Translations under genes and position numbers: made by a program
Notes under the pieces: generated by a model
The model's database searches: none
Seen by the model: the letters and a program-made list of their open reading frames with translations, nothing else
Told to the model about the DNA's origin: nothing
Source of the DNA: Bifidobacterium sp. N4G05
GTDB lineage: Bacteria > Actinomycetota > Actinomycetes > Actinomycetales > Bifidobacteriaceae
Assembly: GCF_002742445.1 (NCBI RefSeq)
Contig: NZ_NJNQ01000003.1
Coordinates: 301,460-365,459 of the forward strand
Length of the DNA: 64,000 nucleotides
Reading direction: 5' to 3'
In this document: in pieces, positions 1 through 5,561 of the stretch
Layout: every line of letters begins with the position of its first letter
How positions within the stretch are numbered: the stretch's first letter is position 1

Positions 1-252
1 CATATATGTGTTGAAACGGTCCGACAATGATTTTGCGCCGTCATCGGAACGGTCATCGGACTGCACGAAAATCGTTTCACCAGCATCTTGCAGGCGATTG
101 CGAATCTTCCTTTTCAGCGCAACATCGGAAACCTCGCCCAGCCCTTCCGATGTGGTTCGTGGACGATTGCCATTCAACGGATCACCGTTAGGATTGGCAT
201 TATTAGCCGCAAAAACGACTGCGAAATCAATCTTATTTTCCAAAGCTGCCAT
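1..252 (-). CDS. cas7c: Cas7c (Csd2), type I-C Cascade backbone subunit, N-terminal part
   Basis: The reverse strand from the ATG at 252 reads 84 codons to the window edge without a stop. The translation contains NANPNGDPLNGNRPR, then VSDVALKRKIRNRL, the typical N-terminal signature of Csd2/Cas7c proteins. Cas7 subunits polymerise along the crRNA guide and form the backbone of the type I-C interference complex. Their spacing forces every sixth guide base out of the duplex. The gene begins 60 bp after the cas8c stop, so cas5c-cas8c-cas7c is probably one transcript. The remaining C-terminal part, and any cas4, cas1, cas2 and CRISPR array, lie outside the window. The family call is firm; nothing can be said about the rest of the protein. 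Confidence 0.93.
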   Translation of the reverse strand, partial: MAALENKIDFAVVFAANNANPNGDPLNGNRPRTTSEGLGEVSDVALKRKIRNRLQDAGETIFVQSDDRSDDGAKSLSDRFNTYM

Positions 253-312: not shown

Positions 313-2190
313 CTAGTTTTCTTTGCTCTTCTGGGATGCTTCTTGCGCTTTACGCATAGACTCCCTTCGCTGGCATGAATAACCGAGCAGAAAGAGCGGT
401 GAAAGTGCACGGTTATCTTCGAAGTCTCCTTCTTTGAAAAGCGCCATGACCTCATCCACGCTGTTCTGGAACCAAGGCGCGCCATTCGCTGATTTCAGGT
501 AGGGCATCAGTTGCTTCCACAGCGTTCCCCATGTTGCAAACGGCTTTGCGACGAAATTGCTCATGAGCTTAACAGCATTGGTCGGACGGGTGTCACTGAT
601 TCCTTGCTTGTACAGGACGCCGTTTTCAAAGCGGTCCGCGAGTGCCAGCAATCTCCCGTATAAATAGTCGCGGTCATTTCGTGTTGGTTCAAGGTACATG
701 GATATCGTGTCCTCCTGTTTGTTTTGCTTCCTCGCGTCATCAATGTAATGTTTTTTCCATAGGCTGCATGCGATTTCAAAATCTCTTAGCCATGCTCCTG
801 GAGCGTCATATCCCATAGGTTTAGTGACTCTGTGGTATGTGGCGTCCAATATGGAACGGGGAAGCGATTCTCCTCCGAACATGCATTCTATAAGCTGCTT
901 TTTCGTGTTTTTCGCAAAACGTTTATAGGCTTTGCTGCTTCTGTCTGACACGTTGTATGCACAGCTGATGATGTCAGCAAATGGTGGCGCACCTTCATAT
1001 GTGACAAACTTCTTCTTTTCTTTGTCGTATATTTTCAACGGCCATGCTGCATCAACATGCCACTGCAGAATACTTTCGACATATTCGTCTCTCGAAAGTT
1101 CACGATAATACGTAACGCTCAAACGTCCAGACGTCGCCGCATCCAGAATGACGATCATCATTGGATCGGTATGCTTTTTGAGTTTGTTAGCATTGCCATA
1201 TCCGCGCAGTACCTTCGAAAAAACTTTTGCGTATTGAAAGTTTGTTGCGGTCAGCGCATCTGCAACATCGTTGCGTGGAGTTTCCGGCTCGACTACAGCC
1301 GATGAGAACAAAGAGCCAAAATCATAAGAGCCTTCCTGCGGGTCGAGTTTCGGCTTTTCGTTGGGGTTTTTCACCGAGCAGATGACTATAGCCTGAGTAT
1401 CGGTAATCGTTCCATGATTATTGACCAACCATTGCAGCGTCGAATGTATCTTCTGCGATGTTTCACCATCGACTTGCAAAGCTTCTTCTTTGGAAGCAAA
1501 GCGCCCTCGATAGGTAAAATTCGATGAATCGTTCGCCGATAACAGTTTGGCATTGCCATTGACACTGACAATTTTCTTAGGGAAGTTCAAGATCGGAGTA
1601 TATAGGTCCTCTCCAAACATATCCTTTCCTATTTTCTGACGATCATGTCGTAAATAGGAAATCCATTGTGCCTGTATATCGGGATCATTCGAGACATCTG
1701 AGTTTTGCAGCCCAATTTCAACTTCGAAGCAAACGCCTGCTTTTCGGTCTTTTTCGGTTATTTCCACATTGAACCGAGCGGCTTCTTCGCTGATGCTGTG
1801 TTCCGAAACGCATCGATAGATGGCATTGAGTTTGACGTTATCACCCTTCCAAGCGGCAAGCTGCTCCAAATACATGGAGGTTTTCTTCTCGTCGAAATGC
1901 AAATCGAGATATTGGAGTTGATCAAACAGAGGATGCGGCACCGGCTTGCTGGTACGTCCCATGGAACTTTCTGTGCACGGGATGACAATCGTTTGTTTTT
2001 CCCTCAGAAGCCGTAGTATCTCACCATTCCCGTTTACCCCTAGCGTCAATAGTGTCGGAAGTGTCGTATGCCCCGGAGGAATCAAGGCTTTCCTAATGTC
2101 AAGCGTAGAACCGTCGCCACTTCTCGGAATTTTTCCGGCGGCGTTGTGCACAGATTCGTTGATAAGCAACAGATTGTTCGACAGGCTCAT
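313..2190 (-). CDS. cas8c: Cas8c (Csd1), type I-C Cascade large subunit
   Basis: This encodes a protein of about 625 residues, a normal size for Csd1/Cas8c. The family's large subunit recognises the PAM and helps to open target DNA. The gene sits between cas5c and cas7c in the canonical I-C order. The first possible start is a GTG at 2193, directly after the cas5c TGA. The ATG at 2190 is preferred because an AGGAG sequence inside the end of cas5c lies about six bases upstream. The genes are effectively contiguous, which suggests translational coupling. Recognisable stretches include GRLSVTYYRELSRDEYVESI and a C-terminal PLFLLGYSCQRRESMRK, typical of the Csd1 C-terminal end. No frameshift or truncation is visible. 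Confidence 0.93.
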   Translation of the reverse strand: MSLSNNLLLINESVHNAAGKIPRSGDGSTLDIRKALIPPGHTTLPTLLTLGVNGNGEILRLLREKQTIVIPCTESSMGRTSKPVPHPLFDQLQYLDLHFDEKKTSMYLEQLAAWKGDNVKLNAIYRCVSEHSISEEAARFNVEITEKDRKAGVCFEVEIGLQNSDVSNDPDIQAQWISYLRHDRQKIGKDMFGEDLYTPILNFPKKIVSVNGNAKLLSANDSSNFTYRGRFASKEEALQVDGETSQKIHSTLQWLVNNHGTITDTQAIVICSVKNPNEKPKLDPQEGSYDFGSLFSSAVVEPETPRNDVADALTATNFQYAKVFSKVLRGYGNANKLKKHTDPMMIVILDAATSGRLSVTYYRELSRDEYVESILQWHVDAAWPLKIYDKEKKKFVTYEGAPPFADIISCAYNVSDRSSKAYKRFAKNTKKQLIECMFGGESLPRSILDATYHRVTKPMGYDAPGAWLRDFEIACSLWKKHYIDDARKQNKQEDTISMYLEPTRNDRDYLYGRLLALADRFENGVLYKQGISDTRPTNAVKLMSNFVAKPFATWGTLWKQLMPYLKSANGAPWFQNSVDEVMALFKEGDFEDNRALSPLFLLGYSCQRRESMRKAQEASQKSKEN

Positions 2191-2193
2191 CAC

Positions 2194-2901
2194 TCACTCC
2201 TCTCCCACCGGCTGCAGATTGCTCCCCAAAGCGAATTCCTTAACACTCTGGTTTTTCCTGATAATTCGTCCATCCAATTTCGTGGATTCCGGACGCTCAA
2301 ATTCGATGATGCCGTCGGACATAACAGGCGACCAGAATCGGGCGATAAAATCGTGGTCCTCGTTTTCATCCGGATACGTGAATCCATGGAACATGTATCC
2401 CATATTCCACTCGCCATAACCGTCATAAAACCCTTCGCCAGATCCGAACTCACATGGTTCCACATACCCCTGGCACTCGCGCGTCCCCAAGAATATGTCT
2501 CGGCGACCGCCTTTCTGAACGGATCTCAAGGCGATATTATGATGTTTGTTTTCGTCGCGGTCAGCGACAAGATCTTCACGCTGATCATTCCATTCGAAAT
2601 GAGCCAAAACCTGATAACGCACGTCTTTGAGATATGTGTAGTACGAAAGATCATTGCCACCGCTCATTTTGATGGGTCGAATTCCCTTTCCTTCAGTCTG
2701 AACTCTGTTCATCACACGAACAGCGTCAATAACCCACATAAAAGTTGGCTTCCAATAGATGCTTTCCGTAATGCCTTTCAAAGCTTGGTACGTTGGCACC
2801 TGATACGAAAATTTCTCACCCCCAACACGTGTTGCCGCTTCCGAGAACAACGCATATCTGCCTGATACCTCATATTCAATTGAGTTGCGATGTCGTTGCA
2901 T
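2194..2901 (-). CDS. cas5c: Cas5c (Csd5), crRNA-processing and handle-binding Cascade subunit
   Basis: A 235-residue protein with the Cas5c hallmark [19 protein letters not shown] followed by [19 protein letters not shown]. In type I-C systems there is no Cas6. Cas5c cleaves the repeat at the base of its hairpin and keeps the resulting 11-nt 5' handle. The start codon at 2901 is preceded by GAAGGAG with good spacing. It heads the cas5c-cas8c-cas7c unit and has its own promoter: on the minus strand TATATT (2942-2947) is a strong -10 and TGTACA (2965-2970) a fair -35, spaced by 17 bp. That promoter is the predicted target of the guide-like RNA described at 3039-3130. Confidence 0.94.
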
Positions 2902-2941
2902 ATAACTCCTTCGTTAATCGTTCCCTCAACCAGTCACTGTC

Positions 2942-2975
2942 AATATAGCACATTTTACGCTTGTTGTACATAGAA
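2942..2975 (-). promoter_or_regulatory. cas5c operon promoter with embedded TTC-flanked protospacer
   Basis: On the minus strand, -10 TATATT is at 2942-2947 and -35 TGTACA at 2965-2970 with a 17-bp spacer, about 40 bp upstream of the cas5c ATG. The minus-strand sequence starting at 2972 (TATGTACAACAAGCGTA) matches 16 of 17 bases with the sequence that follows the solitary CRISPR-like repeat at 3068. The three bases just 5' of it (2975-2973) read TTC, the known type I-C PAM. The protospacer therefore covers the -35 and reaches into the spacer region. The promoter elements were read by eye and the repression is an inference. Confidence 0.75.
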
Positions 2976-3018
2976 CTCTTTGAGTGTTTCTCAATCAACA
3001 ATCAACCAGTTATTCTTG

Positions 3019-3130
3019 TATAAGTGGGTTTTCCTACTGTCGCCACATTCATGGCGTGGATTGAAAATATGTACAACATGCGTATTTACCAAACGAAACT
3101 CTCCTGCAGATTCCCATCGATCTGCAGGAG
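3019..3130 (+). ncRNA. predicted Cas-regulating (CreR/CreA-like) guide RNA with a degenerate I-C repeat
   Basis: A single degenerate type I-C repeat lies at 3039-3067. It keeps the GTCGC start, a short stem (CGCCA at 3041-3045 with TGGCG at 3052-3056) and the conserved 3' part GCGTGGATTGAAAA. Cas5c-type cleavage below the stem would leave an 11-nt handle (3057-3067), so the guide would begin at 3068. Guide bases 1-11 and 13-17 match the cas5c promoter next to a TTC PAM. A 33-nt guide ends at 3100, and a perfect 11-bp hairpin occupies 3101-3130. A candidate plus-strand promoter is TCAACA (2995-3000), 18 bp, TATAAG (3019-3024), which would start transcription about eight bases before the repeat. 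Cas-regulating RNAs of this design are known from other type I systems. The function here is inferred. Confidence 0.75.
3101..3130. terminator. perfect 11-bp hairpin between the guide RNA and the cas3 3' end
   Basis: CTCCTGCAGAT (3101-3111) is the exact reverse complement of ATCTGCAGGAG (3120-3130), with an 8-nt loop. It lies 14 bp downstream of the cas3 stop (minus strand), where it is followed by GTTTCGTTT, a weak U tract. It also lies exactly at the 3' end of the predicted guide on the plus strand. It may terminate both transcripts, or it may stand in for the second repeat hairpin of the mini-crRNA. Confidence 0.6.
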
Positions 3131-3143
3131 AACCACTGCCCTT

Positions 3144-5561
3144 TCATATCATCAACAGAGACATGTCCGTCTCTGTCACCACGCCATATTCGCCTTTGTA
3201 ATAATCTCCATTCAGAACGCAAATATCGAAATCCTCGTTAGCGATGGAAATCGCATGTTTTTCGTTCAAAATCTTGTATTCGTAATCGAAAAGGGAAACC
3301 GTGTATTCCTGTAGCCGCCGCAGAATCGCAATCTTCTCCCTCAACTCACCGTGGCCCAACATATCCAGTAATTCCATCGCATTGCCATAGGGAACCACAA
3401 CATTGTGCGTGATTTTCGGAATCACACGATATTCATTGCCGACCGTTTTGAACGCCTGGGCAAAAAACGGATTGTATCTCTCCCCCATCGTATTGTTCTC
3501 GAATTGCTTACGTTGGCTTTCGTTGTATGCCAGCAACTCATAAATCGTTTTTCCAGCGTTTTCCTTTTTCCAAAGCGGACCATCCAGCAAACTATTGCCG
3601 CCATATCGATCCTCACTTTGAAGCAGCATGCCATAAAACTCATTGAGCATGCCAGTAGAAAGCAGATCAGCATCAGGATGCTCACCCATAATCTGCAAAG
3701 TGAGCTTTTTGCCTCTGTGAATCTCTGGAAGATAGTCCTTGAACCTTTCCTCACCTTGCAACGGATAGACATACACATCCTTGATTTCTTTCGATTCACC
3801 ATTCCTGTTGCACCTGCCAGCCGCTTGCATAATGCTATCCAGACCAGCCATCGCCCTGACTACGCATGCGAACGAAAGGTCCACTCCCGCTTCGATAAGC
3901 TGAGTGCTTACGCAAATCACCGGCTTGGAATCATGAGGATCAGTTAACACCTTTATTCTCGCTAACTGGTCTGCCCTATGTTTGCCACACATGGCAGTAC
4001 TCAAATGAATCAACTCAAACTGCCCGCCAGCATTGAGCTCTTGCAAACACTGATACATTTTGCGCGCTTCACTCTTCGTGTTGACGATAGACAGGCAATT
4101 GCCGTTCCGAAGTGCCTGCTCATATATGATGTTCGCAAGTTCCTCGCAACTCTTGCTTTCCTGTGAAGCAATAATCCGGGTACGCTTGAGCTTCTCTTCG
4201 TAACCATCAGTATTGTCGATAAGATCAGGCTCGTCTGACAGACGCAGATTCTTTCGCGCCGTTCGTTCCAATAAAGGCTGCGTAGCTGAGCACAGCAGAA
4301 TAGTCGAGTCCAATATCGTCGAAAGAAAACTCACAACTTCATTAAACGGATTGATGATATTCAACGGAAGCGACTGAATCTCATCAAAAATGATGACGCT
4401 ATTGGCCATGTTGTGGAATTTACGAAGTTTCGTACCACGCGCCGACATAACCGTTTCCAAGAATTCGACCATCGTAGTCACGATGATCGGATTATCCCAA
4501 CGTTCAGACGCCAGTTTACGTTGACGTTCCTTCGCATCCTCTTCCTCACTTGTGCCGATAGATCCCGTGTTATCGGAATTCTGAAGGCCCGCGGTGGAGT
4601 AATGCTCCAACACAATATTGCTGTCAGCATCCAGACCAAGCATATTCCGGAATGTTGCCACGGTCTGTGACGTAATAGACAAGTACGGAATCACATAAAT
4701 GATTCGTCTTTTCCCTGTTTCCAAAGCATGATGCAAGGCGAAATTCAACGAAGCCAACGTTTTACCGCCTCCGGTCGGAACCGACAATCGGTAAATCCCT
4801 GTCTCCCTGCTCCCAGCTTGACGGCACTGTTCCGTAATCTGTTGACGGATTTTATTGATTTCGGATGTCGAATCGAATGATTTCATGCTTTCGTCAAGAC
4901 GGCGAATCAGTTCCGACCAATCCGCCTTGATCGGATGATATTGCTCTTTCGTCTCAAAATAAGCCGTATCTGTTCTATCGGCATCAATCAAACGAGAATA
5001 AACGTATTTAACTAGTAATCCCGAGTAGAAATAACGACTATCTTTCGACAATTTCAGCGATTTAGTTCGTCCTGCAAAATCGAAAACATCTTTTTCGGCC
5101 TGCTGGAAGGTGTCTTGCAAGTCGAGGTCCAAATCATGTAGCCCCTGTTTGATCTCCCCATACGCATATTTAGGATTCTGTTTATCTGCTTCCGTAAAAC
5201 CTGTGAGAAAAGCCTCATCACCGATTTCATTGATGCAATCAGGAAGCTCTCCATGATGTTTTGCAATAACAAGTTCAAGAATCTCTTTCACGATTTCCGC
5301 TGCCGAATTCGAAATCGGCAGGTCATTGACGACGAACGCACCCTGCCTCGCATGAGGAATCTCACCACGACGTCCCTTGCCTGATATCAGATACGTTTGA
5401 AACTGTTGCGCGACCTTTCCAACATCATGCAGGAGCGCCGCCATTCGCGGAATCTGAGAAAACTCCGATTCATAGCTTTCCGCTAAGTCACCCGCATTGT
5501 GAAGATGGTCACGCAACGTCTGCACACCGCCATCCGCGTCCTTGTGCGCCAGCAAAGTCAT
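3144..5561 (-). CDS. cas3: Cas3, type I-C HD nuclease-helicase
   Basis: An 805-residue protein with an N-terminal HD nuclease domain (AALLHDVGKVAQQF near residue 40) followed by a superfamily 2 helicase. Walker A is SVPTGGGKTLASLNFAL, the DEAD-like box is IIFDEIQSLP, and the C-terminal helicase half carries VSTQLIEAGVDLSF and MQAAGRCNRNGE. Cas3 is recruited by target-bound Cascade to nick and degrade DNA. The open frame extends to a TTG at 5588. The ATG at 5561 is chosen because it has AAGGAG eight bases upstream. It is transcribed separately from cas5c, with a 242-bp gap in between that holds the predicted guide RNA. All catalytic motifs appear intact. Confidence 0.95.
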   Translation of the reverse strand: MTLLAHKDADGGVQTLRDHLHNAGDLAESYESEFSQIPRMAALLHDVGKVAQQFQTYLISGKGRRGEIPHARQGAFVVNDLPISNSAAEIVKEILELVIAKHHGELPDCINEIGDEAFLTGFTEADKQNPKYAYGEIKQGLHDLDLDLQDTFQQAEKDVFDFAGRTKSLKLSKDSRYFYSGLLVKYVYSRLIDADRTDTAYFETKEQYHPIKADWSELIRRLDESMKSFDSTSEINKIRQQITEQCRQAGSRETGIYRLSVPTGGGKTLASLNFALHHALETGKRRIIYVIPYLSITSQTVATFRNMLGLDADSNIVLEHYSTAGLQNSDNTGSIGTSEEEDAKERQRKLASERWDNPIIVTTMVEFLETVMSARGTKLRKFHNMANSVIIFDEIQSLPLNIINPFNEVVSFLSTILDSTILLCSATQPLLERTARKNLRLSDEPDLIDNTDGYEEKLKRTRIIASQESKSCEELANIIYEQALRNGNCLSIVNTKSEARKMYQCLQELNAGGQFELIHLSTAMCGKHRADQLARIKVLTDPHDSKPVICVSTQLIEAGVDLSFACVVRAMAGLDSIMQAAGRCNRNGESKEIKDVYVYPLQGEERFKDYLPEIHRGKKLTLQIMGEHPDADLLSTGMLNEFYGMLLQSEDRYGGNSLLDGPLWKKENAGKTIYELLAYNESQRKQFENNTMGERYNPFFAQAFKTVGNEYRVIPKITHNVVVPYGNAMELLDMLGHGELREKIAILRRLQEYTVSLFDYEYKILNEKHAISIANEDFDICVLNGDYYKGEYGVVTETDMSLLMI

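What the first reader, a model, noticed from the sequence alone, without database searches (positions are those of the whole stretch)
3031..3130. Solitary degenerate CRISPR repeat plus guide that targets the cas5c promoter: a predicted type I-C Cas-regulating RNA
Between cas3 and cas5c, a single I-C-like repeat (3039-3067) is followed by TATGTACAACATGCGTA. The minus strand of the cas5c promoter reads TATGTACAACAAGCGTA from 2972 downwards, 16 of 17 identical. It is directly preceded by 5'-TTC (2975-2973), the type I-C PAM, and overlaps the -35 element. A guide start at 3068 follows independently from the expected 11-nt Cas5c handle. Together these would be very unlikely by chance. The prediction is that Cascade loaded with this RNA represses its own operon, as CreR/CreA-type RNAs do in other type I systems. 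I do not know of this being described for bifidobacterial I-C loci, and I could not search.
Basis: partly seen in the sequence, partly recalled or inferred. Interest (0 to 1): 0.96.

Follow-up and report, generated by a model that had tools for sequence, protein, structure and literature searches.

The report
Type I-C CRISPR self-silencing guide RNA
Beside its CRISPR immune genes this Bifidobacterium carries a lone CRISPR-like guide that matches the predicted on-switch of those same genes and likely makes an RNA that would turn them down; such a pair, mostly with different letters, is present in 11 of the 12 Bifidobacterium genomes found here with this kind of system.

Summary
A solitary degenerate type I-C repeat (3039-3067) is followed by a guide that matches the cas5c upstream minus strand (2972-2956) at 16 of 17 positions, in register with the 11-nt handle and a 5'-TTC flank. 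The one mismatch is at position 12, which type I complexes flip out (recalled). The target covers the predicted -35 box.

Eleven of 12 Bifidobacterium genomes with a close I-C Cas5c carry such a pair. Guide and target changed together: 5-11 positions on both sides, 0-3 on one side only. Mismatches concentrate at positions 6 and 12; pairing fades at 15-17 and is gone at 18. Thirteen of 59 other loci, all Bacillota by record title, also have a pair. Shuffled-guide, register and flank controls are far lower.

Best explanation: a CreR-type cas-regulating RNA by which I-C Cascade represses its own operon. Transcription, processing and repression are inferred. One review passage lists CreR for I-B, I-E and V-A. 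I found no I-C case, but two key surveys could not be read. In the window's group the element lies downstream of cas3, so cas3 would escape this control.

The parts
3039..3067 (+). solitary degenerate type I-C repeat (pseudo-repeat) with hairpin CGCCA/TGGCG
   Evidence: array repeat of the same genome for comparison; the hairpin alone is weak (z -1.15)
3057..3067 (+). predicted 11-nt 5' handle TGGATTGAAAA (array: TGGATTGAAAT)
   Evidence: the 11-nt Cas5c handle is recalled knowledge
3068..3084 (+). guide, 17 nt, 16 of 17 identical to the cas5c upstream protospacer
3100..3131 (+). 13-bp hairpin after the guide; possible 3' end of the RNA or stand-in for the 3' repeat hairpin, and perhaps also the end of the cas3 transcript on the other strand
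   Evidence: fold; roles inferred; the terminator scan found none
2956..2972 (-). protospacer over the predicted cas5c promoter
2973..2975 (-). 5'-TTC PAM
   Evidence: TTC also flanks 6 of 10 spacer-phage matches of the same genome's array
2942..2970 (-). predicted cas5c promoter TGTACA-17-TATATT with extended -10
   Evidence: consensus match; 0.8 expected in shuffles
2194..2901 (-). cas5c (TIGR01876)
313..2193 (-). cas8c/csd1 (TIGR01863; 202.9 bits, cut-off 218.65, near full length)
1..252 (-). cas7c, first 84 codons in the window, complete in L009
   Evidence: TIGR02589
3144..5588 (-). cas3, upstream of the targeted promoter

Best explanation
Window 3039-3131 is a solitary degenerate type I-C repeat with a guide that matches 16 of 17 positions of a TTC-flanked site over the predicted cas5c promoter, and it likely makes a CreR-type RNA that would guide Cascade (Cas5c-Cas8c-Cas7c) to block that promoter, so the system would repress its own Cascade and adaptation genes. 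Shown by sequence: the repeat, register, TTC, the short match, freedom at positions 6 and 12, and joint change of guide and target across Bifidobacterium. Inferred: transcription of the + strand, cleavage by Cas5c to leave UGGAUUGAAAA at the 5' end, loading into Cascade, and binding without Cas3 cleavage because pairing is limited to about 17 nt. Also inferred, as reviews say of other CreRs: relief of repression when array crRNAs or anti-CRISPR proteins take Cascade away. Here cas3 is predicted to escape this control, whereas in seven other Bifidobacterium genomes the target lies 22-88 nt upstream of the estimated cas3 start.
For: Register: among 137 solitary repeat ends (up to 2 mismatches) in 92 loci, 17 guides match a TTC site at all ten key positions (1-5, 7-11) at the predicted register and 0 at eight other registers; at 9 of 10 or more it is 24 against 0-7. 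Shuffled guides: with ends of at most 1 mismatch in 84 loci, 23 of 32 guides reach 9 of 10 or more at TTC, 0.35 expected; 17 are perfect, none in 20 shuffles of each. Other flanks: perfect matches 17 among 5,376 TTC sites against 4 among 251,230 others; 9 of 10 or more, 23 against 23. Survey: 24 of 71 loci with the upstream region held carry a pair, 11 of 12 Bifidobacterium and 13 of 59 others; 12 control settings of flank or register give 0-4 loci. Position tally over 23 pairs: mismatches at 6 in 15, at 12 in 16, at 13-17 in 1, 2, 5, 8 and 9, at 18 in 20; positions 6 and 12 and those from 13 on were not used in the selection. Joint change: relative to the window, nine genomes changed 5-11 of 15 positions on both sides and still match, 0-3 on one side only. 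One genome of another genus, tested after the criteria were written down, has it too (G154). TTC flanks 6 of 10 spacer-phage matches of this system. All seven cas genes are open; Cas5c, Cas7c and Cas1c pass type I-C models and Cas8c scores just below its cut-off.
Against: No RNA or expression data. No + strand promoter by consensus, and the cas5c promoter itself is only a consensus match (0.8 expected). G040 and G060, with identical Cas5c, have one more target mismatch at position 10 (15 of 17). G086 has I-C but no element. Of five genomes of other genera of the family, four have none. 46 of 59 other loci show none by this scan, and three of its 13 hits (L075, L081, L086) are weak. The genomes are related, so counts are not independent; G000, G040 and G060 share one guide, and the highest foreign guide-target score (12 of 15, similar species) equals the lowest own score. 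The pseudo-repeat hairpin is matched by 20 of 200 shuffles, and the guide can fold on itself in the free RNA. The newest array spacer targets the genome's own repeats, so interference may be blocked in this strain.
Confidence: 0.9

Rival explanations
1. The two copies are paired operators of an ordinary protein repressor: an inverted repeat across the cas5c promoter region, with no guide RNA.
For: The guide copy is partly self-complementary, as operators often are. The copies face each other upstream of cas5c.
Against: Across loci one copy adjoins an I-C repeat end in one register and the other adjoins TTC, far above other registers and flanks. Sequences differ among most species while the match persists, with freedom at positions 6 and 12 and loss from 18. 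A protein operator would be expected to keep its sequence.
Confidence: 0.03
2. It is a relic: a dead one-spacer array or a spacer once taken from the own promoter, now without function.
For: The repeat is degenerate and solitary; the array holds a self-derived spacer, so such spacers are acquired.
Against: Guide and target differ jointly among diverged genomes, and unselected positions 13-15 stay matched in 22, 21 and 18 of 23 pairs while 6 and 12 drift.
Confidence: 0.03
3. It is an RNA anti-CRISPR (Racr) or phage-derived mini-array that occupies Cas proteins, rather than a regulator with a target.
For: A solitary I-C repeat from a B. pseudocatenulatum prophage (RacrIC1) inhibits type I-C immunity (PMC10651486, passages and section 9 read).
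Against: The element lies between cas3 and cas5c, and its guide keeps matching the cas upstream region. Exact patterns of three guides were absent from viral contigs.
Confidence: 0.02
4. It is the antitoxin RNA of a CreTA-like addiction module whose toxin has been missed.
For: CreA RNAs have the same anatomy and the same 1-5 and 7-11 pairing (PMC8501985, passages read).
Against: The only place of TTC plus seed found in the own genome is upstream of cas5c, and the gene that follows is cas5c. A tiny RNA toxin was not searched for and cannot be excluded.
Confidence: 0.02

Closest known systems
CreR (cas-regulating RNAs); PMC13131331 names types I-B, I-E and V-A, PMC12737573 says type I and V-A (passages read); primary paper, Liu et al. 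2023, recalled and not read
   Same: Repeat-derived guide in the cas locus with limited complementarity to the cas promoter; predicted autorepression by the own effector
   Different: Subtype I-C, whose repeat is processed by Cas5c rather than Cas6 (recalled); one pseudo-repeat plus a 3' hairpin; no experiment yet
crRNA-like regulatory elements of Shmakov et al. 2023 (reference seen; text not held; content recalled)
   Same: Stand-alone repeats whose spacers partly match cas promoters, mostly in type I
   Different: Whether I-C bifidobacterial loci are in its tables could not be checked
CreA of CreTA modules (PMC8501985, passages read; PMC9458426, abstract read)
   Same: Degenerate repeat, TTC-flanked partial target, pairing at 1-5 and 7-11
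   Different: Target lies upstream of cas5c, not of a toxin; no toxin known here
RacrIC1, RNA anti-CRISPR from a Bifidobacterium prophage (PMC10651486, passages and section 9 read)
   Same: Solitary I-C repeat that engages I-C Cas proteins
   Different: Element here is in the host cas locus and has a maintained promoter-matching guide
Natural single-guide (long tracr) RNA of type II that represses cas expression (recalled; cited title seen)
   Same: Guide RNA that turns the effector on its own promoter
   Different: Class 2 effector and tracrRNA, unrelated origin

Membership tests
CreR | Repeat-derived element in the cas locus outside the array | tested here: met
   Solitary repeat end at -165 of cas5c; array about 6 kb away on the other side
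CreR | Guide partly matches the cas promoter next to the PAM of the system | tested here: met
   16 of 17 beside TTC, over the predicted promoter; TTC in 6 of 10 phage matches
CreR | Guide-promoter pairing maintained in evolution | tested here: met
   11 of 12 Bifidobacterium genomes, joint changes
CreR | RNA is made and processed by the Cas RNase | not testable with these tools
   No expression data; a repeat hairpin and handle are present
CreR | Effector-dependent repression of cas | not testable with these tools
   Needs a reporter
CreR | No coupled toxin gene | tested here: inconclusive
   cas5c is the gene that follows the target; no search for a small RNA toxin was made
Type I-C CRISPR-Cas | Cas3, Cas5c, Cas8c, Cas7c, Cas4, Cas1c, Cas2 with I-C repeats | tested here: met
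   Cas8c slightly below its curated cut-off; the Cas3, Cas4 and Cas2 models are not I-C specific
CreTA | Guide targets a toxin promoter | tested here: not met
   The one TTC-plus-seed place found in the genome is upstream of cas5c
Racr (RNA anti-CRISPR) | Carried by a mobile element | tested here: not met
   Between cas3 and cas5c of the cas locus

The most novel reading that the evidence does not exclude
Type I-C systems carry their own ancient class of cas-regulating RNA: one Cas5c-type pseudo-repeat, a 17-nt guide and a 3' hairpin that stands in for the second repeat. It is kept by guide-promoter co-evolution throughout Bifidobacterium and in scattered Bacillota. In one bifidobacterial group the RNA and its promoter sit downstream of cas3, so Cascade and adaptation are autoregulated while the Cas3 nuclease is not.
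Probability: 0.55. Interest if true: 0.72.

Novelty: new member of a known kind. Interest (0 to 1): 0.64.

Why it matters
[quoted passage not shown] breve (PMC12838274, passages read). A built-in autorepressor would set how much Cascade those cells hold, would be expected to react to array crRNAs and to anti-CRISPRs, and could be removed to test its effect on editing and immunity. The joint changes across species give an evolutionary footprint of what Cascade needs for promoter binding without cleavage: positions 1-5, 7-11 and about 13-15, with 6 and 12 free. The two placements relative to cas3 make it testable whether cells gain from regulating the nuclease separately.

Tried and rejected
A second target of the guide near the cas3 start of the own genome: best TTC-flanked match 7 of 10, any flank 8 of 10, rejected. 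An element in G086: none, also with relaxed repeat ends. Exact patterns of three guides in viral contigs: none. Rfam over 2850-3250: one match below its threshold, taken as chance. A search of 396 genomes drawn from the phylum for Cas5c at E 1e-20 gave only the own genome. An intrinsic terminator with a T run: none found in 2880-3200. Literature: nine searches listed no paper that by title or abstract start treats CreR in type I-C or in bifidobacteria. Five of the nine listed only part of their hits (25 of 135, 30 of 450, 15 of 17, 15 of 26, 30 of 78), and the library lacks most subscription papers. Considered and rejected: protein operator, relic, Racr, CreTA (see rivals). Hits that I would not defend singly: L075, L081, L086.

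Rows dropped and overlaps: the tally leaves out one of 24 pairs (G031, repeat end with 3 mismatches). One search set aside 16 of 87 loci because the upstream region was not held; two 9-of-10 hits (L019, L050) are not in its count. L010-L014 are the same genomes as G012, G025, G085, G095 and G098 (contig lengths), counted once in the 12; both versions were scanned, but only the longer ones gave hits. One search did not count positions changed on both sides without a match. Freedom at 6 and 12 was written into the scans from recalled type I biology before the tally. The phage flanks come from 6 of the 13 records listed. In one search the Cas3 query has an M as first residue.

Full report
What is there. 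The window starts inside cas7c of a type I-C system and reads, all on the minus strand, cas7c (part), cas8c, cas5c and cas3. The same contig continues with cas4, cas1c, cas2 and an array of 58 repeats. cas3 ends at 3144 and cas5c starts at 2901. In the 242-nt gap lies, on the opposite strand, a solitary I-C-like repeat (3039-3067) and a guide from 3068. The guide's first 17 nt match the cas5c upstream region at 16 positions, directly after TTC. The promoter scan of 2880-3200 found one promoter-like site, TGTACA-17-TATATT with TG before the second hexamer, at 2970-2942 on the minus strand; 0.8 are expected in shuffles. The target 2972-2956 covers its first hexamer.

Is it chance? In 2000 shuffles of the gap the best match to the guide was 14 of 17 (one shuffle), and 12 of 17 beside TTC (two shuffles); observed 16 beside TTC. 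In the window the guide recurs nowhere else within 3 mismatches, and TTC plus seed occurs once in the genome, as does its reversed control.

Does it recur in relatives? Of 112 genomes of the genus, 18 have some Cas5 match and 12 a close I-C Cas5c. Eleven of these 12 carry the same anatomy: a solitary repeat end on the strand opposite to cas, a guide in the same register, and a TTC-flanked match upstream of the first gene. In four (the window genome G000, G001, G040, G060) the pair sits between cas3 and cas5c; in seven it sits upstream of cas3, with the target 22-88 nt before the estimated cas3 start and cas3 and cas5c only 18-134 nt apart by the protein matches. Promoters were not scanned in those genomes. 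The exception is G086. G000, G040 and G060 share one guide; the other eight genomes have eight different guides. Relative to the window, nine diverged genomes (these eight and G154 of another genus) changed 5-11 of 15 positions on both guide and target and still match, and 0-3 positions on one side only. Own pairs match at 12-15 of 15, foreign ones at 5.5 on average over 126 comparisons; the highest foreign score, 12 between similar species, equals the lowest own score. The genomes are related, so these are not independent events. G001 is probably B. adolescentis: its repeat and its count of 86 fit the table of PMC4521832 (passages read).

The 5+1 signature. Over 23 pairs, positions 6 and 12 mismatch in 15 and 16, near the level expected without constraint. 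Positions 13 to 17, which were not used to select the pairs, mismatch in 1, 2, 5, 8 and 9, and position 18 in 20; positions 19-30 mismatch in 13-21. This is how a type I complex reads a target (every sixth base flipped out; recalled), and CreA RNAs pair at 1-5 and 7-11 (PMC8501985, passages). The window's single mismatch is at 12, that of G001 within the first 12 is at 6, and several others mismatch at both.

Controls. Among 137 solitary ends in 92 loci, 17 guides match perfectly at the ten key positions at the predicted register and none at eight other registers; at 9 of 10 or more the counts are 24 against 0-7. With ends of at most one mismatch, 23 of 32 guides reach 9 of 10 at TTC against 0.35 expected from shuffled guides. 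Perfect matches: 17 among 5,376 TTC sites against 4 among 251,230 other sites; at 9 of 10 or more, 23 against 23. Over 71 loci with the upstream region held, 24 have a pair, and twelve other flank or register settings give 0-4. Outside Bifidobacterium 13 of 59 loci have one, among them Paenibacillus dendritiformis, Cytobacillus eiseniae and Pullulanibacillus pueri; by their titles all 13 are Bacillota (classification recalled). Three of the 13 are weak. The loci were the 80 best Cas5c matches of a capped scan, so the share among all I-C systems is unknown.

Out of sample. After writing down the criteria I tested five genomes of other genera in the family: one (G154, where cas3 is inverted) has a perfect ten-position pair with a mismatch at 6; four have none, one of them with a stop in cas5c. 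So the element is nearly universal in the Bifidobacterium I-C genomes examined but not in the family.

PAM in this system. Ten matches of the own array's spacers to phage DNA in six records include six with TTC directly 5', the others TTG, TTG, TTT and CTC.

RNA anatomy. The pseudo-repeat folds into a short hairpin (-7.5 kcal/mol, z -1.15, matched by 20 of 200 shuffles), and the 100-nt stretch folds far better than shuffles (z -5.06), mainly through a 13-bp hairpin at 3100-3131. In the folds of the 11 bifidobacterial elements a strong hairpin follows within about 50 nt of the guide start. Mature I-C crRNAs keep the hairpin of the next repeat at their 3' end (recalled), so this hairpin may replace the missing second repeat; that is inference. 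In the window group it may also end the cas3 transcript.

How it most likely works. Shown: anatomy, register, TTC, overlap with the predicted promoter, joint change. Inferred: transcription, Cas5c cleavage, Cascade loading, promoter block, sparing from Cas3 by the short pairing, and relief by competing crRNAs or anti-CRISPRs, as described for CreR in reviews (PMC12737573 and PMC12948488, passages). In the window group cas3 lies upstream of the target and shows no comparable match of its own, so Cascade and adaptation would be autoregulated without Cas3.

Known or new. The mechanism is the CreR mechanism. One review passage lists I-B, I-E and V-A (PMC13131331), another says type I and V-A (PMC12737573). 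Nine searches, five of them with partial listings, showed me no I-C or bifidobacterial case. The two primary surveys (Shmakov 2023, Liu 2023) were not readable here and may contain I-C predictions. I therefore file it as a new member of a known kind.

Against. There is no RNA evidence and no recognisable + strand promoter. G040 and G060 have a further mismatch at position 10. The strain's newest spacer targets its own repeats, so interference may be off in this strain; promoter binding would not need Cas3.

Noticed in passing
G000:C6:298314-298348 (array in L009), outside the window: The spacer next to the cas2 side of the array (inferred leader end) is an exact 35-nt antisense copy of a repeat-spacer junction of the same array, TTC-flanked; its first 27 nt match 51 repeat copies, and the fixed repeat end TGGATTGAAA puts TTC beside each. 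The newest spacer thus targets the array itself.
   Followed up: partly
L131-L136 (phage records): Array spacers of this genome match Bifidobacterium phages BP1, BD811P1, BD811P2 and unnamed gut phage sequences, one perfectly and the others with 1-5 mismatches.
   Followed up: partly
L115, L116 (G060, G040): Cas5c is 100% identical to the window's in two other species-level genomes, but the target has a change at position 10 that the guide does not follow.
   Followed up: yes
L118 (G086): The one Bifidobacterium I-C genome of 12 without the element, a natural contrast for cas expression.
   Followed up: partly
L127 (G154): cas3 is inverted relative to cas5c and the element sits between the two divergent genes.
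   Followed up: no
window 3065-3087: The guide folds back on itself in the free RNA (9 pairs), which would hide the seed until loading.
   Followed up: no
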